64,000 nucleotides of DNA from assembly GCA_006384855.1 (NCBI GenBank), contig VCJN01000895.1:1-64000 (forward strand), read 5' to 3'. Position 1 is the first letter of the stretch. Each line of letters starts with the position of its first letter. This document shows positions 29,429 to 56,187 of the stretch, one piece after another. The position numbers were made by a program, and so were the translations under genes. Source of the stretch: Tetraselmis striata. Its lineage: Eukaryota > Chlorophyta > Chlorodendrophyceae > Chlorodendrales > Chlorodendraceae. The notes under the pieces were generated by a model that saw nothing but the letters and a program-made list of their open reading frames with translations, had not been told where the DNA came from and made no database searches.

Positions 29429-29970
29429 TTTTCCTGCAGCGCATGGCCATGGCTCAGGTGAGGGATTGATGGAGCCACCACTCCGCCGTTTTGTCACCGC
29501 CAAGTGGATCCCTGGCGTGCGTGCTCCATAGAGCCGCCACATAGGAAGAGCGCCGCTGCGGGGGCGTGCGGCTGGCCGCGGAGCTACATGTCGCAGGGTG
29601 GCAAGGTCGCAGAGGAGGATGGGCAGGCAGACAGGGAAAACCGAGAAGAACCAGAAGCACCCACCAGTGAACCGGCGAGGCTGTGATGGTTTGGCGGAGG
29701 GCAGCCGCTGACGACTGCCGAGCACGCCGTCAGTACGCCGGGGTCAGAACGCTGGAGGCTGGCGAATGAGGAGTCGCCGGGTCGGAAGTGTTAGGACACC
29801 TGTTTCATCTTGACGTGAACTGACTCACCAGTAGGTCGCTTCTGCTGCCAGCGAGGGCAGACCCGAGAGCGTGCTCCTGTCCATCAGCTGCTGACGTGCA
29901 GACGTACACGTACATTGGCGACGACGTGCCCGGATCGATATGATCACGCGCGCGGGACGCGGATGTGCAG
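29429..29970. other. 5' flank of the sialidase-like gene, no gene recognised
   Basis: This lies upstream of the sialidase-like start codon on the minus strand and next to the LINE 3' end. No promoter element can be named. Confidence 0.3.
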
Positions 29971-29971
29971 C

Positions 29972-32900
29972 TTTTTTTTCGCCCCCGGGACAGGACTGGC
30001 AACAGTGAAACCCTTGCAGCGTCTCTACGACGGCCGTTTAGGCAGCAATCCAGTTACGGAAAGCCCTGGGTAGGCGACGCTCCGTTATAGTCATGAAGCA
30101 AATTGCCGAAGCATTTCGCAAGACTAATTAAAGGCCAGTGACGGAATTTCCAACACTGTTGGATCACCGTCTAAAACACTGCCATCAAAATACCCGGCAC
30201 TGACCACGAAAGGTCCGCCCTACCCGTTTGGGCGTCGGCCCATTCGAGTAATGCGAGTTGGGGCAAGCCCCAACCCGCGGAGCAAAGCATTTCGGGAGTG
30301 CGATACATGTGCAACAAAAAAAGCAATGTGAGGGAGGGCCCGACGCCATAGCTGGAAAAATTTCCCATTCCAAGTAAAATCCAGGGCGCCGTGAAAGGAG
30401 GGGGGGACCCCGCCCAAAATAAAGGCAGTTAAGTCCTCAGGCGTTGACGCACCAACCTGACTACTAATAAAATCCCTGAACTCCGGAACTAACAACCCAA
30501 AATTATGACGGTGATACCCCCACCGCGGGCACTCCACCAACATATGTTCGATAGTCTCAGATTCACCTCCGCCACATGCTGGGCAGTGTTCAAGGAACCG
30601 CTCAGGCATGGCATGAATCCGGGCCAATCGGCGGGCAGTGGGAAATACTCGGGTGCGTAATTGTATCATAATGTGCAACCCGGCCACAACCCCCGCGGGG
30701 ACACCCACACCGTACTGTGGCAACGGGTTTGACGCATAGGACGCCTGGACATATATACCCCAGGTGTTATTGCGTGCTAATGATACCGACGATTCGTAAC
30801 GCGCCCACACCGATGCCTTTACTAGTTTAGCGGCATCGCGCGCGGCTAGTGACCTCCACTCAAGTGGAAGGTGCGCCCCCTCAGCTAGCCCTACGTTCGC
30901 CCTACCTAGTCGATCTAACCACCGCACAGTCCCCGACGTCCACGTGTTAGCTAGGGCGCGCCCGACTTGGCTGATCTACTAAATGGGTTATACATGTATT
31001 CAAGTCGGATGCTTTAAGGAACGCCCGAGCCCGTGCCGCAGCGGCCGTAGCCTCTATGGGCGCAATATCCAATTCCCGCATCATCGGTGCAGTGGCCACC
31101 CCAGGGGAGTTTTTACCTACCCCAATGAGGCAACGCAAGCACTGATTGAGTACGGTTTGTAATTTATTTGCGCCGCTAGTTTTATCCATGCCCCATACTT
31201 CACACCCATAAGTTAAAACCGGCAGTACACAGGTTTTAAAAACCGACACACGCACATTAATAGGAATTATGTCCCGTCCACCGACTAATACCGAATCGAG
31301 CGCCTCAATAGCACGTTTACCATTCTTAACCCGGTCGTCTACTATGTGTTGCATACCTAAATCCGATCTAATGACCGTACCCAAGTACCTATATTCATTT
31401 ACAACCGGTACCCGTTCCCCCCCAAGCTGCCATCGGGCAGCTTGTTCGCGTAACGCGGTCTCGTCTGAATATCGGCCTAATGCCATCACCCCACACTTAA
31501 GTACCCCAAACCCCATAAAATGGTCCTCCGCCCACTGCGAGAAGTGGGCGAACATGGCATGCAGATTATCGAACGAGCCTGTGATACCAACAGCGTCGTC
31601 CGCGTATAACTGACCTGGCACCCGTAGTGGTTGCCTTGCCGCTAATGTGTCAGTGCACCCTGGTACATCACACCCTAGATGTTCTACCCCATCGAATATA
31701 TCGTTAATAAATATGTTAAATAGGATGGGGGAAGCGGGGCATCCCTGTCAGAGGCCACGCTCTATGGGTATGGGGTCTGATAGTGTTCCCGGGGCCACCC
31801 CTGTCTCGACCCGTACCATACTATCCATGTATAAAGTTTTAATGAAGGCAAGCATATGACCCGTAACTCCTATGGCTTGTAGTTTTAGGAATAAAAGCTC
31901 ATGAGGTACGGTGTCATATGCCTTCCTAAAGTCAATAAAACCCGCGTACGTGGGTAGACCTGCCGCTTGGCGACGAGCCGCGATATCGAACAAGCTGGCG
32001 ACTTGCATGGGGCCCTCCTCATTCCGCATAAAACCCGCTTGCCAACGGCGGATTATCCCTTTAGCTTGGCAGACGTCTTGCAAGCGTTGGGAAATGACGG
32101 TCATAAGGAGTTTCATAGCGGCACCCATAATCGAAATACCCCTATAATTGTCCATAACGGTCGCGTCGCCTTTCTTGGGCACCGATACTATGGCCGAGCT
32201 ACGCCACTGCTGGGGGATATAGTTCTTAGTCCATATCCCGTTAATCAAGGCCAGCAATGCCTTGCCAAAATGGCTATTCGGGGCGTATATCGCCAATTTT
32301 AAAGCCTCTGCAGTGATCCCATCCTGCCCCTGGGCCTTATTATTGTTTAAACGCCTAAGAGCTTTGACTAGTTCCTCCCATGTTATATGCCCATTAATCC
32401 CGTTTAGTGCGGGGGCACTGGGTGGGGATGTACCGTGGCGGTATTCCCACGCCGCACGGTATATCGCAACCCGTTGTGCTAGGGGGTGGGGGTCACGCAG
32501 CAGCTCCCGATAGTGCCGCGCCCAGCACGCATTGATTTCGCCCGGCTCGGTATGAAGTACCCCCGATACCGGATCGCGTACTGGCTGGTCGTTCGCGCCC
32601 TCGAATGAACCCTGCCCCTTACGGAGAGAGCGCGCCCACTTCCAGAACTCCCGTCTCCCACCACCCTTCTTAAAATCCTGAACCGCTTTTAGCACGGCCC
32701 GCTCCCTCTGGCGGCGGCGGTTATTACGTACTAGTGTCCGGACCCTATGCCGTGCAGCAGCATAATGTGCCGACGCTAGAGCGGCATCCCGAGGGCCCCT
32801 AGTCCCCCGGCACGCCATAAAGGCCATGCGCCGACGATTAATCGCACCAAGGATAGACCGTTGGAGCGGCGGCCCTAGGCCACGTCGCCTGGGTTTGGTA

Positions 32901-33392
32901 ACAGCCCCTACCCCACGCGCCGCCGACCATATTGCCTGAATAAAGTGGTCGGCGCCGGTGTCTAGGGACCCCCCCCCCCTCCCGAGGGCCCGCCGTCTAC
33001 ATGTGGGTCATCTAGAGGGGTGAGCACCGCGAACGGATTAGCGGTGACAAAATCGTGGAACGGCTTGGGCCATTCAGAGGGAGAGTCACCGTGGGCCGGT
33101 TTGGGAATGGACCTTGCAGACAGGCGTTCATGCAGGGGAGGTGGACAAGCATCCTCACGGATGGCGCCCATGGGGAAACAAGACAGGACAGGGAAGTGAT
33201 CGGAGGTGTCCCAAGAGTAGTCCACCCATGCCGAGGGCGAGAGAGGGGGGGGAGGGCCTATGGTGGGAGGCCATGCGATGAAGTGGTCGAGAACGCGGCA
33301 GCTGCCCCTCCGGCAAGTACCCCGTTCGCGCGCCGATGAATCCCGCGGCCACATGGGCTTTCCGCCGGGAAGGCACCGTTGTTCAGCTACCC
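29972..33392 (-). mobile_element. LINE retrotransposon, 5' truncated, with A8 tail
   Basis: On the minus strand the element runs from the C-terminal part of an endonuclease near 33354 to a 3' UTR ending ...GGGGGCG followed by eight A (29972-29979). The 3' UTR phrase recurs at 22461 and 33525. A similar 3' end without coding capacity follows in the same orientation at 33.5-34.3 kb, so two insertions lie head to tail. No clear target duplication was found. Genes: see the pol pseudogene. Confidence 0.85.
30220..33354 (-). pseudogene. LINE pol: AP-type endonuclease C-terminus, reverse transcriptase, zinc knuckle
   Basis: Order: TSDHFPVLS (endonuclease SDHxP motif) near 33200; RT fingers and palm with NNKAQGQDGITAEALK, NYRGISIM, AGFIDFRKAYDTVPHE, then QGCPASP and LYADDAVGI (catalytic YADD); thumb/connection; then a CPACGGGESETIEHMLVECP zinc knuckle near 30560. 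Three lesions are visible. A frame change lies at a run of C near 32971-32985. An in-frame TGA at 31748-31750 sits just before QGCP, where the family has a basic residue (one C-to-T change from CGA would do this). A one-base frame change lies near 30945. The RT core residues themselves are intact. The element is non-functional as read, unless the homopolymer shift is a sequencing error. Confidence 0.88.
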
Positions 33393-33488
33393 GTACCTTG
33401 TCGTCGGTGTGAATTACAAAGAGGGCAGTTTCCCATAATTAGAAAATCAACACAGCAAGGCGCCTAAAAGGGTACCTTGTCGTCGGTA
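33393..33488 (-). mobile_element. Micro-insertion: 66-bp retroelement 3' end with 16-bp TSD
   Basis: The word gtaccttgtcgtcggt occurs at about 33393-33408 and again at about 33473-33488. Between them is a segment (gtgaattacaaa...cgcctaaaag) that matches the last ~65 bp of the non-LTR element at 9.0 kb with few differences. It is therefore an extremely 5'-truncated insertion of that same family. Confidence 0.8.
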
Positions 33489-33504
33489 CCATGTAAACCT
33501 GTAG

Positions 33505-34285
33505 AAACTGTTTTCCGCCCCCAGGACAGGACTGGCATCAGTAGTAAAAACCTTGCATCAGCGTCTCTACGACGGCCGTTTAGTAGGCAGCGCGATCCAG
33601 TTACGGAAAGCCCTGGGTAGGCGACGCTCCGTTACAGTCATCAAGCGAATTATTGCCGAAGCATTCTGCAAGACTAATTGAAGGTCAATGATGGAATTTC
33701 CAACACTGTTGGATCACCGTCTAAAACACTGCCATCAAAATACCCGGCACTGACCACGAATAAAGGTCCGCCCTACCAGTTTGGGCGTCGGCTCATTCGA
33801 GTAATGCGAGTTTGGGAAGGCCCAACCCGCGGAGTAAAGCAGTGGGATACATGTGCAATAACAATAAAATGAGGCAATGTGAGGTTGGGCCCGACGCCAT
33901 AGCTGGAAAATTTCCCATTCCCAATAAAATAATCCAGGGCGCCGTGAAGGGAGGGGGGGACCCCGCCCAAAATAAAGGCAGTTCAATCCTCATGTGTTGA
34001 CGCAATACCTGACTGCTAGTAAAGTCCATAAACTCCGGAACTAACGACCCGGCCCAAATTATGACGGTGATACCCCCACTGCGGGCACTCCACCAACATA
34101 TGTTCGATAGTCTCATATTCACCTCGTCCGCCACATGCAAGGCAGTGTTCAAGGAACAGCTCAGGTATTTTCTGGCATGAATCTGGGCCAATCGGCGGGC
34201 AGTGGGAAATACTCGGCTGCGTAATTGTATCATTATGTGCAGCCCGGCCACAACCCCCGCGGGGACACCCACACTGTATATTGTG
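33505..34285 (-). mobile_element. Second LINE copy, 3' end only
   Basis: The minus strand repeats the last ~250 codons' worth of the LINE (HIMIQLRSRVFPTARRLA, then VPEF) and its 3' UTR, with several frame changes and small insertions such as duplicated TAA/TAT units relative to the copy at 30.0-30.7 kb. It is truncated at about 34285. The zinc-knuckle cysteines are broken by frameshifts. Confidence 0.85.
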
Positions 34286-43489: not shown

Positions 43490-44219
43490 TCAGGACTCAG
43501 CGGCCTTGAACTCCCAGGCGCGGCGGCACATCGGGCAGCGCTGCTCCGCCTGCGAGTGGATCCACTTCTGGATGCACTGCAGATGGAATGCGTGCCCGCA
43601 TTGCCCCCACACCACCGGGCTGTCGTCGCCGGGGTACTTGCCGTCGGGTGGGCACCCGTCGTACGGCATCCTGCGGGCGGGACCGTCGTGGGGCTTCAGC
43701 AGGCAGCACAGCGCACGAGGACACCATGTGTATATGTGCATAGAACGTGGGAAATGACACCGCCACAGTGAAAACTTTGTCGGGTGTTTACGTTTGGAAG
43801 CTCGAGGGGTGCCAGCACACGCCCGACGGGGGTCAGAAGTGTTGCGTGCCACACACATGAATTCCTGTGATAACAGATGTGAAGTGCATTTGTCGTACGC
43901 CACCATTCCAAGTGGGATATGATGATTCCATGTTGAGGTGTGAAATACCGGAACTGGGTCCGGGTTGCAGATTCTCGTGTGTGTCCGCTGGAAGTTGGAA
44001 ACTCCACCGGACGGTTGCGCGGCGTTTGGCCGTATGAATGTTTTCACGCGTTAACCCAGGATGATAATACGGGTGTTTACGATCTATATATGCAATTTCC
44101 GGAATTTTCAATGCAATGGGGATGCGGGCGCACCGGCAGATTCCGCACACGTCGTCCCCCGCGTTCCAGGTCCACGAGCCCACCGCGTGCCACTTCTTCA
44201 CTGTGACGCTGAACGTCAT
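43490..44219 (-). CDS. APC11: Anaphase-promoting complex subunit 11 (RING-H2 E3 subunit)
   Basis: Two exons, 44219-44134 and 43670-43490, join in phase 2 at CG|G to give 88 residues and a TGA stop, close to the ~84 residues usual for APC11. The N-terminal part reads VKKWHAVGSWTWNAGDDVCGIC and the second exon gives MPYDGCPPDGKYPGDDSPVV, then WGQCGHAFHLQCIQKWI and CPMCRRAWEF. All RING-H2 zinc ligands are present (CxxC, the C of DGC, CxHxxH in CGHAFH, final CPMC). APC11 recruits E2 to the anaphase-promoting complex and drives ubiquitination at mitosis. The gene is tail to tail with ODA1, with only 148 bp between stops. The intron is 463 bp and has no C-run. Confidence 0.95.
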
Positions 44220-45663
44220 TGCCGATGCTCGCCACCTGCCTCTCCTGCAGCCTCCACCTGGGCGCTAGGCTAGGGGGCCGGGTTTGGCGGACCTAGTTTC
44301 CGCTGGCTCGGCGGGGCTGGGAAGAGCACCGCACGTCCTGTCGTGGTCGTCAGTCAGCGCGCGTGGACTGCGCGCCCCCACCAGCGGCGCCAGCGGCAGC
44401 GAGTCACTGTAAACTGTAAACTGTCACGAGCCCTCCGCGCGGTGGCGCTCGTGAGGGGGCAGTTCGTCCCCGTGGACAGCTTTTCTGGCCAGTGCCCCTC
44501 CGAAATTCGAGTATACTGTGCCGCCCGTGGCGCAATAATAAAGGCTGCTCGTGTGCTGTTGGCGATTGAGCGTCGTCTGTCCGCTCTGTCTCCTCCATCA
44601 GGCCTTGCTGGATACCGGATGCACTGCGGCCTGGCGGAGAGTTCAGTCGGTCGTCATCCCCCGCCAGCGCAGGGCAAGCGCGTGGGCGCGCGCGTTTCGT
44701 TCATTCGTCACACGCTCTTAATTTTGTACGCGGGTTTTCTGGCATGCGCTTTCTTACGGGGTTTTAGCAGGGCTATAATCCTTGGTCTCTATCTGGCCCA
44801 TCATTTTTGGAGGGGCTGGCCCACTCTTGTAGTCCTATTATTGGGGATGTAATCCTTTAACGCAGTACATTACAGTGCTGGCTCGAAGATGCCCCTGCCG
44901 CACAGCCAGTCAGAGGTGTCGTTATAGCTTCATATCGATATATTATTCGACATTATGCAGGAGTAGTCATACCTCAGCCCTGACCTGACTCCTACTCCTC
45001 TAGAGCTAATCGCGCAGGGGGTGCTGGGCAGCGGGAGCGATTAATAAAAAGCCGGAAATGGCGAGCCGGGTCTTGCAGACCTCCTATCTATTTGTAGTTA
45101 GATAAACGAGGTTTCTAACATGTTGTGCGGAAAAGCGTGGCGCCCTTGGGGGTTTCAAGTTAAGGCGTAACTTAAGAGAAGAGTATCATTAAGCTTAATT
45201 CAGCTTACGAGACGTAAGGTTGAATTCCGGACCGGAATTCATGCCGGAATTCAAGCCGGGACTTTTGTAAGTTAAGGTATGCAACTATAAATTAAGGCAT
45301 GAAGTGTTAGGGTGGTGTGATCTCCCTTGCACCCCGGGTCAAAGCATAGCATAGCAATGGCCGAATGTTGTGTGGCGCCAATACACCAATCGCGGGGAAG
45401 TAGGGTGAATGTGTGTAAGCAGCATGTGGGAGTCGGCGGCGCGTTTTTTAGCGCAGCGCATGGCATGAGATGGCAGCAATCGCATCGCCCTGTGTCTAGG
45501 AGCTGTCGTCGCCTGAACTGTCGCCACCGAAATGGAACCCGAGCAGTCACGATGGCCATGCTCTGGCTCGCACAAGGGGAAAGAGAGATTTGGGACTTCA
45601 AAGCAGCGGCTCGCGAGCTTTGACCTTAGCGCGGCATGTCGTACGTCACAAACCCAACATAAG
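44220..45663. other. No gene confirmed; flank of APC11 and of the LTR element
   Basis: One plus-strand frame (44343-44852) ends in a hydrophobic stretch but has no recognised motif. Part of it (AARVLLAIERRLSALS) faintly recalls the Gag-like coiled coils at 11.2 and 34.8 kb. Otherwise nothing was identified. Confidence 0.3.
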
Positions 45664-49319: not shown

Positions 49320-50420
49320 CGCTTAAAGCTTACAAGGAAGATGACGACTTCTTTGCGAGAGCACGGATAGACCGCGCCCGTTGAGGCACGTCACACGATG
49401 GCTACCAACGCCAACCTCGACAATATGCCGAAGCCGCACGCGTTGAAGCCGAGGTTCGAGCTCAGATGCTTCAAGACGACAACGCCTTCCAAGGAGAGGC
49501 TTCATGAGAGGCGCCAAGGAGATGCTTCAAGATGACAACGCCTTCCAAGGAGGGGCTTCATGAGAGGCGCCAAGGAGAGGCTTCATGAAGGGAATGGGAC
49601 AAGATTATAGCGTAAACGGTACATGCCACTATACTTCACTTATGACTCACATAAAATGGGACAATTTACTAGCTTTAAACCCTGTGCAGGTTTTTAGGGT
49701 TCGCGTGTACTGGCGCAAAGTACATGATCACTTGGTGGCGCCGGAACGAGGCAAAGGCGGCGGGTCGAGGCAGGTTCTCCGAAGGTAGGTAGGTAGGTAG
49801 GTTGCCGCGAAGTCGAGGCAGTTCTCCGCCTCCCACACCTATCTAAAAGTTCTCGCTGAAACAAGTAGGAAGTAGGGCTGCGGGGTCAGTATGGGTTCCC
49901 CCTTGCGGGCTATACACGAACTTCGCGCTGCACTTGGGGAGGTGCGGGAACTCATTCATGATCATGAGGGAATGTTGAGTAGGGAAGTTCTCGAGATGGC
50001 AACAAGTTGTATCGGGTCTGCCGTCGGGTATGCCCGTCTCCTCGCGTGGGGCAGCCTTGCGTGATGCTGCGACCTTGGAAAAGTCGTTAAGGGGGGGGTG
50101 GCCAGCGCCCCCCAGCGTCTTTGGCCGAAGTAGTGGCGTCTGAAGAGGGTGCCGCAGGCAGCCCCGGTATGCAAGGCAGCGCTAAGCGTTCCGACACGGC
50201 AGTTGCAGGGGCCATGGGGCTGAGGTATGACCACACCATATCGGTCACTGGCTTCCTGCCGAAGACGGCCACACTGAATATGCCGACTACAAAGCGGTCA
50301 AGTCGGTAATCTCATGCCTCTCTACTAATTGGCGGTTCTTATATGCCTCGGCGGCTACAAAGGTATGCTGCCCCTCAAACAATTTCCGCGTGCAGGTAGC
50401 AATCACCTGCGGTTGAACCA
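49320..50420 (+). pseudogene. Retroelement-like coding fragments in several frames
   Basis: Plus-strand coding-like pieces follow one another with frame changes: a coiled-coil piece (about 49410-49508, AEAARVEAEVRAQMLQDDNA); a 57-codon frame at 49891-50064 (LRAIHELRAALGEVREL, then AVGYARLLAWGS); a Gly/Ala-rich piece (about 50121-50309, GAAGSPGMQGSAKRSDTAVAG); and a last piece (about 50232-50417) containing EDGHTEYADYKAVKSVIS and ending TGA. Together they look like a Gag-type protein broken by indels. Family not identified. Confidence 0.35.
49465..49590. repeat. 56-bp tandem duplication
   Basis: The unit starting gatgcttcaagacgacaacg at 49465 repeats at 49521 with few changes, and a partial third copy follows. 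Confidence 0.85.
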
Positions 50421-50429
50421 ACGGATACA

Positions 50430-53400
50430 TTGCAGCAAGGCCGCCCACCTTGGCGACTGGCGTCGCTTCTTTTGAGGCCGGTTGCGACTATGCGGCAGCA
50501 AGGCGAGGGGGTACGTCGCTCGTGCAGCTAGCAGTCGGGGGGATGTGGGTAGGTTGAACGCGCGATGGCGACATAAGTAGCAAGCCATAAAAATGCAAAG
50601 GTGGACAACAACATTATGTCGCAGCAAGGCCGACCACCTTGGCGACGTGTGTCGCTTCTTTTGAGGCCGGCTGCGACTCGTTGGCGGCGGGCGAGGAGAT
50701 GCGTCGCTTGTGCCAGCTTTTGCACTCGGGGCTGTGGGTCGAATGTGCGATGGCGACATTATAATTAGCAAGCCGAAAACTGAAACAGCCAAGCATAGCC
50801 TTACCTCGCAGAAAGGCCGCCCACCTTGGCGACTCGCGGCGCCTCTTGCAAGCCGGCTGCGACTCGTCGGTAGCAACGCGAGGTGGTGCGTCGCTCGTGC
50901 CAGCTTTTGCACTCGGGGGCTGTCGGACGAACGTGCGATGGCGGCATAATTAGCAAGTCGGAAACAAACTAAAACAACCTAGCATAGCCTTACAACATCG
51001 CAGTAAGGTCACCCACCTTGGCGACTCCCGGCGCCTCTTGCGAGCCGGCTGCGACTCGTCGGCAGCAAGGCGAGGGGGTGCGTCGCTCGGGGGCTGTGGG
51101 TGGAACGTGCGATGGCGACAATAATTAGCAAGCCGGAAACTACAGGAGCCTATATCCCATAGCCTCACATCAAAGCAAGGCCGTCCACCTTGGCGACTGG
51201 CGTCGCTTCATTTGAGGCCGGCTGCGACTCGTCGGGAGCAAGGCGAGGGGGTGCGTCGCTCGGGGGCTGTGGGTCGAACGTGCGATGGCGACATAATTAG
51301 CAAGCCATAAAAATGCAAAGGTGGACAACAACATTATGTCGCAGCAAGGCCGACCACCTTGGCGACGTGCGTCGCTTCTTTTGAGGCCGGCTGCGACTCG
51401 TTGGCGGGGGCGAGGAGATGCGTCGCTTGTGCCAGCTTTTGCACTCGGGGCTGTGGGTCGAATGTGCGATGGCGACATTATCATTAGCAAGCCGAAAACT
51501 GAAACAGCCAAGCATAGCCTTACCTCGCAGAAAGGCCGCCCACCTTGGCGACTCGCGGCGCCTCTTGCAAGCCGGCTGCGACTCGTCGGTAGCAAGGCGA
51601 GGTGGTGCGTCGCTCGTGCCAGCTTTTGCACTCGGGGGCTGTCGGACGAGCGTGCGATGGCGGCATAATTAGCAAGTCGGAAACTAACGAAACAACCTAG
51701 CATAGCCTTACAACATCGCAGTAAGGTCACCCACCTTGGCGACTCCCGGCGCCTCTTGCGAGCCGGCTGCGACTCGTCGGCAGCAAGGCGAGGGGGTGCG
51801 TCGCTCGGGGGCTGTGGGTGGAACGTGCGATGGCGGCATAATAATTAGCAAGCCGGAAACTACATGAGCCCATAACCCATAGCCTTACATCACAGCAAGG
51901 CCGTCCACCTTGGCGACTGGCGTCGCTTCATTTGAGGCCGGCTGCGACTCGTCGGCAGCAAGGCAAGGGGGTGCGTCGCTCGTGCCAGCTTTTGCAATTG
52001 GGGGCTGTGGGTCGAACGTGCGATGGCGACATAATTAGCCAGTCGAAAACTAAAACAGCCTAGCATAGCCTTACATCGAAGCAAGGCCGCCCACCGTGGC
52101 GACTGGCGTCGCTTCATTTGAGGCCGGCTGCGACTCGTCGGCAGCAAGGCAAGGGGGTGCGTCGCTCGTGCCAGCTTTTGCAATTGGGGGCTGTGGGTCG
52201 AACGTGCGATGGCGACATAATTAGCAAGCCGAAAACAACAGAAGCCCAGGATAACCTTACATCGCAGCACGGCCGCCCACCTTGGCGACTGGCGTTGCTT
52301 CTTTTGAGGCCGGCTGCAACTCGTCGGCAGCGGGGGCATGGAGTGCGTTGCTCGTGCTAGTTTTTGGAGTCGGGGGCTGTCAGTCGAACGTGTAATGGCG
52401 ACATAATTAGCAAGCCGTATAAAAATACAAAGGTGCACCACAACATTATATCGCAGCACGGTCAACCCCCCCCCCCCCCCCCCCCCCGCCCCCCCTCTCC
52501 ACCCTGCCCTCCATCCCGCCTTTTCCGCATCTCTTACAATGGGCATGGTGGTTGTCGCGCCTTTAGCCTCCGAGCCGCTGGCATCCGGCACGCCCTCACC
52601 CCCGCCTAATGCTAGCGCCAGTCCAGAGAGTGTGGCTGCCGACGCGCCGGCTCCCTGCCCGCCGCTCTCCCCCGCGTGGCTATCGCTAGGCGTAGGCAAG
52701 CCCTCGGCCGCATCGCGAGCGGCAGCCGCCAAACTCGGCGACATGTCTGCCGCTGGCGGGCCCTGCCCCGGACCCGCCACTGACTGCGTATCGGCCTAGC
52801 TAGGTCCAATGGCCAGGGCCGCCACGCGACGAGAGCGTTTCGCATGCGGGTCAGGAGCAGCGCCGCGAGGAGGTTCGTCGCTCGGGCCAGCTTTTGCGCT
52901 TGGGGTCTGCGGGGGCCAACGTGCGATGGCGACTCAATTAGCATGCCGTAAAAGTAACAAGTGCGCAACGGCAACAAAGGTGCAGCGGGTCCAACCCACC
53001 TTGGCGACATGAGGCGCCCGTGTCGAGGCCGGCTGCGACTCGGGAGCAGCGCTTCGAGGGGGTGCGTCGCTCGGGAAAGCCTCTGCGCTCGGGGTATGCG
53101 GGGCCAACGTGCGATTTCGACTCTATTAGCGAGCCGTAAAAGTAATAGGTGCGCAATGGCAACACGTGCAACGGGGCCAACCCACCTTGACGATTCGCGT
53201 CGCCCTTGTCGAGGCCGGCTGCGGCTCGGCAGCAGGCACGCGAGGGGGTGCGTCAACACGACTGCCATACAACACGACTGCCACTCCGAATACCAGGTCA
53301 CCCAGGCGCGCATTGTCGCGTATACCAACAGTAGGCGAGGATTTCTGCCCCAACCTTGTCGCTTCTTGCAAACCGTCCACAGAGTTTGTTGTCGACTGAA

Positions 53401-54900
53401 GTGCGTTTCTGCGGGCGACAATGGGGTTTCCTGCGACTGCGACGAGTCCAGAAGGTGCCGGCAGTGCAGCCACCTTTATCTATGGCGGGGACTTTTGCAT
53501 ACATCACCAGGGTCTCAGGCTCCGCTGCGCCCGGCACCACTTCAGCGGTGCCCACCCCATAGTAGAGCTGGCGATCCTGCGCTCCGCCCTCTTCCTCACG
53601 TCCTGGGGAACGATGGACCAGGACCGCGGCGGCTTGACTGCAGCGGATGGGACAAACTTGTGCGGTGCTCCGGGGGAGGTGGGTGAAGAGGAAGTGACGG
53701 GAGTGGCAATAATCGGCGGCGGGATCGCTCCTCACGGCCGCGCTTGGAGCCAGCACCACCCTGCCCGCGTTTGCCCTTGCCTTTCCCCCCTTTTTGCTTC
53801 TCCCGGCCTGCACAGGCGTCACCAAAGGATTGCCGCAACTGTGAGCAAACTGTGAGGGTCGTTCGGGCCTTTTGCAGCGGGGGCAGCGGGTGCGTCGCTC
53901 GTGCCAGATTTTGCAGTCGGGAGGTATGGGTCGAATGTGCGATGGCGTCTACATAATCAGCAAGTCGGAAACTTAAAAAACCCAACATAGCCTTACATCG
54001 CAGCAAGGCCGCCCACCTTGCGACTGGCGTCGCTTCTTTTGAGGCCGGTTGCGACTCGCCGACAGCAAGGCGAGGGGGTGCGCCGCTCGTGCAGCTAGCA
54101 GTCGGGGGGGGGGGGGGGGTCGAACGCGCGATGGCGACATATTTAGCAAGTCATAAAAATGCAAAGGTGGATAACATCATTATGTCGCAGCAAGGCCGCC
54201 CGCCTTGGCGACGTGCGTCGCCTCGGTTGAAGCCGGCTGCGACTCGTCAGCATCGGGCGAGGGGATGCGTCGCTCGTGCAAGGTTTGGGACTCGGGGGCT
54301 ATCGGTGGAACGTGCGATGGCGGCATAATAATTAGCAAGCCGGAAATTGCAAAAGCCTAGCTTTACCTTACATCGCAGCAAAGCCGCCCACCCTTGCGAC
54401 TGGTGGCGCATGCGAGCCGGCGGCGACTCGTCGGCAGCAAGGCGAAGGGGGTGCGTCGCTTGTGCCACGTTTTGCACTCGGGGGCTGTGGGTGGAACGTG
54501 CGATGGCGACATAATTAGCCAGTCGAAAACTAAAACAGCCTAGCATAGCCTTACATCGAAGCAAGGCCGCCCACCGTGGCGACTGGCGTCGCTTCATTTG
54601 AGGCCGGCTGCGACTCGTCGGCAGCAAGGCAAGGGGTGCGTCGCTCGTGCTTTGCAATCGGGGGCTGTGGGTCGAACGCGCGATGGCGACATAATTAGCA
54701 AGCCGAAAACAACAGAAGCCCAGGATAGCAACACTACATCGCAGCAAGGCCGCCCACCTTGGCGACCGGCGTTGCTTCTGTTGAGGCCGGCTGAAACTCG
54801 TCGGCAGCGGGGGCAGGGAGTGCGTTGCTCGTGCTAGTTTTCGGAGTCGGGGGCTGTCAGTCGAACGTGTAATGGCGACATAATTAGCAAGCCGTATAAA
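50430..54900. repeat. ~186-bp tandem repeat with ~720-bp and ~2.46-kb higher-order copies
   Basis: Unit boundaries marked by cttggcgac recur every 183-188 bp where units are full length (52281, 52095, 51909; 54758, 54575, 54392). A four-unit block repeats at about 720 bp: 51735, 51544 and 51358 match 51017, 50825 and 50638. A larger block, the lead exon plus three units, is duplicated at about 2.46 kb (55.3-54.5 kb versus 52.9-52.1 kb). Confidence 0.9.
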
Positions 54901-55400
54901 AATGCAAAGGTGCACCACACTACCACAGCATTACATCACAGCACGGCCACATCCTCCCCCCCCCGCCCCCCGCCCTCCATCCCGCCTATTCTACAGCTCT
55001 TACCGTGAGCATGGTGGTTGTCGCGCCTTTAGCAGCCTCCAAGCCGCTGGCATCCGGCACGCCCCCACCCCCGCCTAATGCGAGCGCAAGTCCACAGGGT
55101 GTGGCTGCCAACGCGCCGGCTCCCTGCCCGCCGCTCTCCCCAGCCTGGCTATCGCTATGCGTAGGCCAGCCCTCGCCCGCACCGCCAGCGACAGCCAAGC
55201 TCGGCGACATGTCTGCCGCTGGCGGGCCCTGCCCCTGACCCGCCACTGACTGCGTATCGGCCCGGCTAGGTCCAACGGCAAGGGCCGCCACGCGACGAGA
55301 GCGCTGGGTGGGGGCACGTCGAGCAGACGCAGCCCTTGGTCGAGCGGGTCGGGCGGACCGGCTAGCAGACTCTCGAGAGGGTGGCCGCGTGCGGGGGGGA
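50430..55400 (-). CDS. Gene with a tandem array of ~96-nt exons encoding a Pro/Ala/Ser-rich repeat
   Basis: On the minus strand a long lead exon (about 55396-55004) ends at a GTAAGA donor in phase 0. It is followed by short exons 54853-54758 (96 nt), 54664-54575 (90), 54484-54392 (93), 54298-54204 (95), then a unique part and more diverged units at about 53255-53186 and 53090-53000. A second lead exon, 52916-52538, again ends GTAAGA in phase 0 and feeds 52376-52281, 52190-52095 and 52004-51909 (96 nt each). Each exon begins after CAG and ends AAG or ACG before GTGG. Repeat residues read SDAPPRLAADESQPAS followed by EATP-VAK. Introns are ~90 nt with a conserved TGCTAATT then CACGTT...CAG. Further units to 50430 have lengths 77, 95, 93-94 and 78, where frame is not kept. 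No homologue is known to me; the protein would be low-complexity and probably disordered. Ends of the gene are not resolved. Confidence 0.5.
53260..53870 (-). other. Unique segment inside the repeat array
   Basis: A ~600-bp non-repeated stretch interrupts the array. The minus strand has a long open frame (about 53825-53298) containing ETLVMYAKVPAIDKGG and a basic KKGGKARANAGR segment. Just upstream, in one frame, is a Cys-rich phrase CPRCKRPERP-SQFAHSCG that could bind zinc. It may be an additional exon of the array gene or a separate insertion. Confidence 0.3.
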
Positions 55401-55407
55401 AGCGGGG

Positions 55408-56187
55408 GGGGGGGGGGGGTTGCTAGGCACCTCCATCGCGATGGGACCTACCCCAGCCTGCATGGCAGTAACCGATAGCGTGAGCTGCAAGTCTCTATAG
55501 CAGCCTACTCACCAGCCGTGCAGACCTACGCCGAAGGTAGGCGGAGTCCATTTATGTCACGGATCCGGGCGTTCGCGCCTTTTTGTGTAAGTTAAGACCC
55601 TACATGCCTGTGTCGCATGGGATCCTTTCCTATGAATAGTCGCTAACTGTCTGCCACGGCCCGGTTTGGGTTCTGGGCAGCCTTGGCGGTGGTGGAAAGG
55701 TATGCCAGTAGCGACTAGTAGTACTGCGCAGCCCCCCTCCACTCGAGTGGGCGGGATAAGGGATGGCGGCGGCGACGGCGAGTATACAGTACTTTGCGCT
55801 GTATATATATGTCTGTAGTACATTGTTTGGCGCGCGAGCTAGTAAATTGTCCCATTTTCAGTGAGTCAAAAGTGAAGTACAGTGGCCTGCACCGTTTACG
55901 CTATAATATTGCCCTTTTCCCCTTCATGAAAACCTGACAACACATCGCCCGGCGATGCGAAAAAGGGCACGAACCTCGTTGTCATCGACGTCTCGGATGT
56001 GAGTCATATCATTGTTTGTCATTTTTGTCCTTAACATGACAAAACAATTGGCGCAGATAGCATGCTTATCATTTTGTCTCGACTAGGACAAATATGGTAT
56101 GTGGTGTCTCGCTCGGGATTGACATTGCTCGCAGTCTTGGCCATCATCAGGTGCATATGGAAGACAAGTGACCTGAGAGTCTTGGTG
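55408..56187. other. No gene recognised
   Basis: Contains a G-run (about 55408-55419) next to the array gene's first visible exon. Otherwise only short motif-free frames. Confidence 0.35.

What the first reader, a model, noticed from the sequence alone, without database searches (positions are those of the whole stretch)
50430..55400. A gene growing by tandem duplication of a 96-nt exon
Seen: ~186-bp units whose minus strand carries CAG, a ~96-nt open block, AAG|GTGG and a ~90-nt spacer containing TGCTAATT about 30 nt before the next CAG. Exon lengths in the best units are 96, 90, 93, 96, 96 and 96. Distant units (53.0-53.3 kb) keep the same reading frame (SDAPPR..A..E.QPAS) while the middle of the spacer has diverged. 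Two long lead exons join the array in the same phase. Inference: each unit is an exon plus intron, and copy number can change without shifting frame, giving an expandable, probably disordered Pro/Ala/Ser protein. I know of no named family with this repeat.
Basis: partly seen in the sequence, partly recalled or inferred. Interest (0 to 1): 0.85.

Follow-up and report, generated by a model that had tools for sequence, protein, structure and literature searches.

The report
Transposon gene with tandem exon array
The repeats sit inside a multi-copy jumping gene of a green alga; fuller relatives carry the same repeats as a row of small, frame-preserving exon-like blocks, while the copy here is a decayed derivative.

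Summary
The locus, however, is not a host gene. It lies inside a transposon (window 49590-55921; 85-bp inverted ends, exact 9-bp target duplication), with 39 other close copies scored in a 224-Mb genome whose proteins match Tetraselmis striata gene models. Fuller relatives show the parent design: a Mutator-like (MULE) transposase gene and, on the opposite strand, a second gene ending in a row of phase-0 exon-like blocks. In the three parent-type arrays read, 25 of 25 measurable blocks are 96 or 102 nt, and three public gene models string such units together. In the window copy only 9 of 17 are multiples of three, and the joined second block meets a stop. Substitutions do not support coding: exon and spacer diverge about equally, Ka/Ks is 0.58-1.07 in the proposed frame, and the lead exons favour that frame in 0 of 10 comparisons. 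No transcript evidence was available. Verdict: probably a new variant of a known kind, a MULE accessory gene with an expandable exon array, seen here as a decayed non-autonomous copy.

The parts
49581..49589 (.). left 9-bp target-site duplication CTTCATGAA
55922..55930 (.). right 9-bp target-site duplication CTTCATGAA
49590..55921 (-). whole non-autonomous MULE-like copy (6332 bp; minus strand is the sense of the exon array)
   Evidence: shared ends with other copies
49590..49674 (.). terminal inverted repeat, 85 bp, 88% to the other end
55837..55921 (.). terminal inverted repeat, 85 bp
49590..50425 (+). relic of the 5' part of the transposase gene (89.6% to L043:213-1071)
53275..53494 (+). 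relic of the transposase 3' part with CxC...CxH (SWIM-like by eye, name recalled), 89% to L043:2568-2787
55004..55444 (-). 'lead exon' 1, ends at ACG|GTAAGA
   Evidence: coding not supported by Ka/Ks
52538..52795 (-). 'lead exon' 2, ends at ATT|GTAAGA
   Evidence: coding not supported by Ka/Ks
53888..54891 (-). first array block, period 183
52845..53254 (-). two units whose spacer is most like that of parent-type arrays
50426..52417 (-). second array block, about 11 units
54758..54853 (-). exon-like block, 96 nt, PPTPKTSTSNALPAPAADEFQPASTEATPVAK
54575..54664 (-). exon-like block, 90 nt (91 nt in all 10 other non-autonomous copies measured)
52281..52376 (-). exon-like block, 96 nt
52095..52190 (-). 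exon-like block, 96 nt
51909..52004 (-). exon-like block, 96 nt
51735..51811 (-). exon-like block of 77 nt: frame first lost here in the second array block

Best explanation
The array is a decayed, transposon-borne copy of the 3' end of a transposon gene. The parent element is a two-gene MULE: a transposase gene read from one end and, converging on it, a second gene (gene 2) whose last part is a row of 96-nt phase-0 exons, each followed by a ~93-nt intron with GTGGG, a GCTAAT branch-like site and CAG (sites and lengths shown; splicing inferred). Because each unit is a whole exon plus a whole intron and the exon is a multiple of three, gain or loss of units by unequal recombination (inferred) changes the length of a Pro/Ala-rich tail without shifting frame. 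The window copy belongs to a non-autonomous subfamily that has lost the middle of gene 2 and most of the transposase gene; its array varies in unit number as DNA although the frame is broken, and it was spread by transposase made elsewhere (inferred).
For: Ends: 85-bp TIRs; 9-bp TSD exact in 8 of 10 copies including the window, one with one mismatch, none found for C2003; the script let the ends slide by a few bases. Dispersal: 40 places at 95-100% to a 701-bp piece, one being the window, with 40 of 359 candidates scored; 420 matches of a 25-bp TIR core at up to 2 mismatches, reversed control 0. Parent element L043: transposase ORFs on one strand, gene 2 on the other. PF10551 (MULE) matches the central ORF of L043 at E 5e-4, 20.9 bits, cut-off 27.6; five 52%-identical relatives (C2299, C354, C2453, C2764, C2395) overlap PF10551 matches over the cut-off. 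Block lengths divisible by three: L044 17 of 17, L043 4 of 4, L045 4 of 4, against 9 of 16 in the window and 87 of 180 in ten other non-autonomous copies. Thirteen blocks timed from two fixed site patterns: twelve 96 nt, one 95 (C218); two of the thirteen are in L043. Distinct blocks 11 of 11 against 17 of 39, Fisher p 0.001; related sequences, so only a guide. The reading ...RLEQ|TPSAGAG... would join the last large gene-2 exon to the array in phase. Gene models P0004-P0006 string 32-aa units together. Unit number varies: 5 to 27 spacer blocks in 14 non-autonomous copies with an array, 5 in L043, 18 in L044.
Against: No RNA evidence. Exon divergence between unit types (0.21-0.34) is about that of the spacer (0.13-0.33); Ka/Ks in the proposed frame is 0.58-1.07 and that frame is lowest in 4 of 6 comparisons. 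Lead exons: proposed frame lowest in 0 of 10. Block lengths of 96 or 102 in closely related units are few independent events, and the longer spacers differ mainly in slippage-prone poly-C tracts. Gene models are predictions; none of P0004-P0006 uses the ...RLEQ|TPSA junction (they enter at ...ASQ|GAAPSG or ...DLA|GPSD), and P0005 also reads units in another frame. Four models found with a window-type query hold no row of window-type units. No transposase match was listed on the contig of L045. The transposase of L043 scores under the MULE cut-off. In two non-autonomous copies (C1481, 11 units; C1706, 14 units) the joined blocks stay open despite off-frame lengths, so openness alone says little in this G+C-rich sequence.
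Confidence: 0.75

Rival explanations
1. The array is a non-coding minisatellite carried by the transposon; open frames follow from high G+C, and gene-model exons are predictor artefacts.
For: Equal exon and spacer divergence and Ka/Ks 0.58-1.07; no frame preference in the lead exons; unit number varies in copies whose frame is broken; gene models disagree on how the array is entered.
Against: 25 of 25 block lengths divisible by three in parent-type arrays; a TGA in the exon frame right after the donor in the type-C spacer, where coding would need splicing.
Confidence: 0.18
2. The units are read through without splicing as one long repeat ORF (186 and 189 are multiples of three).
For: Open frames of 194 and 301 aa run across units in L043 and the window.
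Against: L044 spacers are 92-119 nt, 8 of 17 not divisible by three; the type-C spacer carries TGA in the exon frame; window spacings within blocks run from 173 to 193.
Confidence: 0.03
3. The array works as DNA: repeated binding sites, for transposase or chromatin, built on the conserved spacer block GTCGCCATCGCACGTT.
For: The block is kept across unit types while much of the spacer diverges; non-autonomous copies with 5 to 27 units have spread.
Against: The array is internal, not next to the TIRs; two family members read have no unit (L039, L042); the block sits just where intron 3' ends carry signals.
Confidence: 0.12

Closest known systems
Mutator-like elements (MULEs) with two genes, such as MuDR
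   Same: 9-bp TSD, inverted ends, MULE-like transposase, a second gene on the opposite strand. mudrA and mudrB of MuDR are named in PMC6446971 (passages seen); their convergent order is recalled
   Different: no exon array in a MULE gene appears in the listings seen
KI-MULEs and other plant MULEs with a ULP-like ORF (PMC2528002, passages seen)
   Same: extra ORF opposite to the transposase; gene 2 of L043 has GGHFAIAVW...YDSL...QQGG...CC, an order of residues recalled from C48 proteases
   Different: no Pfam or PDB sequence match and a failed structure model; the tail of tandem exon-like units
Tetrahymena LRR genes with arrays of exactly 90-bp exons (PMC6564038, passages seen, part of the abstract among them)
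   Same: tandem exon plus intron units, fixed exon length, one intron phase, variable unit number, link with transposable elements
   Different: LRR repeats, phase 2, host genes near a retrotransposon, RNA support; here phase 0, Pro/Ala-rich, part of a transposon's own gene, no RNA support
Brown-algal ROCO genes with one LRR per 72-bp exon (PMC11378527, passages seen, part of the abstract among them)
   Same: each repeat is one exon; exon order and number vary
   Different: phase 2, structured LRR, host genes

Membership tests
MULE (Mutator superfamily) | target-site duplication of about 9 bp | tested here: met
   exact in 8 of 10 copies, one mismatch in one, none found for C2003
MULE (Mutator superfamily) | long terminal inverted repeats | tested here: met
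   85 bp, 88%
MULE (Mutator superfamily) | MULE transposase domain in the parent element | tested here: inconclusive
   PF10551 20.9 bits against 27.6 in L043; five relatives at 52% identity overlap matches over the cut-off
MULE (Mutator superfamily), autonomous | window copy encodes its own transposase | tested here: not met
   only relics; no Pfam match over a cut-off in the element ORFs scanned
Tandem exon array of a protein-coding gene (parent gene 2) | exon length divisible by three in each unit | tested here: met
   25 of 25 measurable blocks in L043, L044, L045; 12 of 13 by site positions, two of them in L043
Tandem exon array of a protein-coding gene (parent gene 2) | splice junctions in RNA | not testable with these tools
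   only gene models were seen
Tandem exon array of a protein-coding gene (parent gene 2) | purifying selection on the encoded residues | tested here: not met
   Ka/Ks 0.58-1.07 between unit types; proposed frame lowest in 4 of 6
Tandem exon array of a protein-coding gene (window copy) | unbroken frame through the array | tested here: not met
   9 of 17 lengths divisible by three; stop at residue 203 of 325 in the joined second block
C48/ULP protease (gene 2 upstream exon) | family profile or fold match | tested here: inconclusive
   no Pfam or PDB sequence match; structure model mean pLDDT 36.8

The most novel reading that the evidence does not exclude
A DNA transposon carries a self-contained, expandable exon module: a 96-nt phase-0 exon with a minimal intron whose branch site and 16-nt block make each new copy splice-ready, so that any unit number gives a working, longer disordered tail of a transposition accessory protein, and the module can be handed to host genes when the element inserts.
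Probability: 0.2. Interest if true: 0.75.

Novelty: new variant of a known kind. Interest (0 to 1): 0.55.

Why it matters
Tandem exon arrays are described in a few host gene families (Tetrahymena and brown-algal LRR genes). Here the array belongs to a transposon's own gene and occurs in many copies of one genome, with 5 to 27 units in the 14 non-autonomous copies counted, some arrays held in frame and others not. If splicing is confirmed, it would be a natural experiment on how exon arrays grow and what keeps them in frame.

Tried and rejected
A host gene in place: rejected, since ends, TSD and copies bound an element. LTR retrotransposon: set aside because the ends found are inverted (which searched the inverted strand only). 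Unspliced repeat ORF: see rivals. Lead exons as coding: over 10 pairs Ka/Ks in the proposed frame is 0.60-1.02 in eight, 2.70 in one and undefined (Ks 0) in one, and another frame is lower in every pair; coding is not supported. In one search the slice for lead exon 1 was out of frame, so its win1 rows are void; redone. An ungapped comparison gave codon-position differences of 190, 176 and 184: no bias. mis-set the L043 donors, and chose the donor that brings the length nearest 96; recut all arrays without that aim. The pattern (49 of 116) misses units with odd acceptors. One search stopped with an error and was rerun. Structure prediction of P0007 failed (mean pLDDT 36.8), so no fold search was made. 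Pfam scans of the element ORFs chosen gave no match over a cut-off. Host intron motifs were looked at in one gene only (APC11-like, GTGCGC...CGCAG, read by eye).
Full report
WHAT IS THERE. On the minus strand of 50.43-54.9 kb lie units of about 186 bp. Each has CAG, an open block of about 96 nt, AAG|GTGG and a spacer with GCTAAT about 36 nt before the next CAG. Nineteen units are recognisable; 17 have both an acceptor and a donor by the rule, and 9 of these 17 have a length divisible by three.

IT IS A TRANSPOSON. A 701-bp piece of the array has 40 places at 95-100% in the window's own 224-Mb genome, one of them the window (40 of 359 candidates scored). Comparison with eleven other contigs gives shared ends at 49590 and 55921 (nine left and eleven right junctions printed). 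The ends are 85-bp inverted repeats, 88% alike. The window insertion is flanked by CTTCATGAA on both sides; of ten copies tested, the window included, eight have an exact 9-bp duplication, one has one mismatch, and for C2003 the script found none. A 25-bp core of the end occurs 420 times with up to two mismatches and its reversed control never. The C2731 copy sits inside another repeat.

ORGANISM. Proteins of the parent element match gene models named jgi/Tetstr1, at up to 100% over part of their length. I read this as Tetraselmis striata; the expansion of the label is recalled.

THE PARENT ELEMENT. L039 shares the ends and carries a transposase-like ORF opposite to a lead exon. A search with that ORF gave 147 matches in the genome (330 candidates, 144 scored). 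L043 (C598) shows the fuller plan: transposase ORFs on one strand, gene 2 on the other, with a 526-aa open stretch followed by tandem units. PF10551 matches its central transposase ORF at E 5e-4, under the curated cut-off; five relatives at 52% identity overlap PF10551 matches over the cut-off. In L044 the last large open stretch of gene 2 could join the array in phase as ...RLEQ|TPSAGAG....

BLOCKS IN THE PARENT. L044 lies on C1913, where transposase and lead-exon matches are also listed. There 17 successive units have blocks of 96 nt (12) or 102 nt (5), without stops, each with donor GTGGGATG, and a different last block follows. Spacers are 92-119 nt, 8 of 17 not divisible by three, the longer ones by poly-C length. 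A recut that does not aim at 96 gives 17 of 17 (L044), 4 of 4 (L043) and 4 of 4 (L045) divisible by three, one unit each in L044 and L043 not measured. L045 (C1619) has a lead-exon match on its contig but no listed transposase. Thirteen blocks timed from fixed site patterns are 96 nt in 12 and 95 in one (C218); two of the thirteen are in L043. The acceptor list showed 100 of 212 places and the donor list all 66. In ten other non-autonomous copies 87 of 180 blocks are divisible by three, in the window 9 of 16 (sums by hand from its rows). In all ten the second unit is 91 nt and the joined first three units meet a stop at residue 55; the window, with 90 nt, is the exception. Counting distinct sequences, 11 of 11 against 17 of 39 (Fisher p 0.001, related sequences, a guide only).

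GENE MODELS. P0004, P0005 and P0006 string 32-aa units together; P0005 also reads some in another frame, and all three enter the array by other junctions than the one inferred above. A search with the P0006 array returned only P0006 and P0005 among 7997 scored candidates. A search with window-type units gave four models, none of which holds a row of window-type units. Gene models are predictions; their RNA support is not known to me.

WHAT SPEAKS AGAINST CODING CONSTRAINT. Between the unit types A, B, C and W, exon divergence is 0.21-0.34 and spacer divergence 0.13-0.33. Ka/Ks in the proposed frame is 0.58-1.07; that frame is the lowest in A-C, A-W, C-W and B-W, not in A-B and B-C. For the lead exons it is the lowest in 0 of 10 pairs. 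If the tail is translated, its length, frame and composition (P 25%, A 25% in L044) would matter more than its residues; that is inference.

HOW IT VARIES. Counting a spacer block, units number 17 to 25 in nine non-autonomous copies, 19 in the window, 27 in L037, and 13, 10 and 5 in L041, L038 and L040; L039 and L042 have none; L043 has 5, L044 18 and L045 4 (L044 and L045 are partial stretches). Spacings suggest that several units are gained or lost together, for example 173/188/185/171 repeated in C1481 and 185/172/170 in C2731. Block lengths in such a set add up to a multiple of three in some cases (77, 95, 93, 77 in C1481) and not in others (77, 95, 93, 78 in the window). Variation thus goes on in arrays that are off frame; in parent-type arrays the unit design would make it harmless to the frame.

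A CONSERVED SPACER BLOCK. GTCGCCATCGCACGTT, between the branch-like site and the acceptor, is kept across unit types with few changes. With up to three mismatches it occurs once in the rest of the window. It may serve splicing or binding; unknown.

LITERATURE. Listings of four searches (4 of 4 papers; 12 of 141; 10 of 140; 12 of 27) showed no report of such an array by title and abstract start; only open-licence papers are held, and the unlisted ones were not seen. None of the 10 papers listed holds 'Tetraselmis'. Passages were seen of PMC6564038, PMC2528002, PMC11378527, PMC6446971 and PMC9168764; no paper was read whole.

VERDICT.

Noticed in passing
G000 contigs C142 and C770: TIR matches on one strand at regular steps (about 4.9 kb in C142, 8.5 kb in C770, with matching transposase pieces each time in C770): whole elements in head-to-tail rows, or an assembly effect.
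   Followed up: no
window about 29970-34280: Another dispersed repeat: parts match other contigs at 84-98%, and the C2731 element copy is inserted in a relative of it.
   Followed up: no
P0002, P0003, P0005: Gene models that put different N-termini before the same gene-2 exons; possible exon donation to host genes, or prediction artefacts.
   Followed up: no
L044 and L043 spacers: 9 of 17 L044 spacers are 93 nt, and an L043 ORF reads through such spacers, so retention of one would add 31 residues without a shift.
   Followed up: partly
window 43490-44230, minus: APC11-like RING gene (PF12861, E 2.8e-23) with an intron GTGCGC...CGCAG read by eye.
   Followed up: partly
window 52945-52538, minus: The second lead exon seems fused to the front of an array block, so the element was rearranged inside; gene model P0010 reads through such a fusion.
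   Followed up: partly
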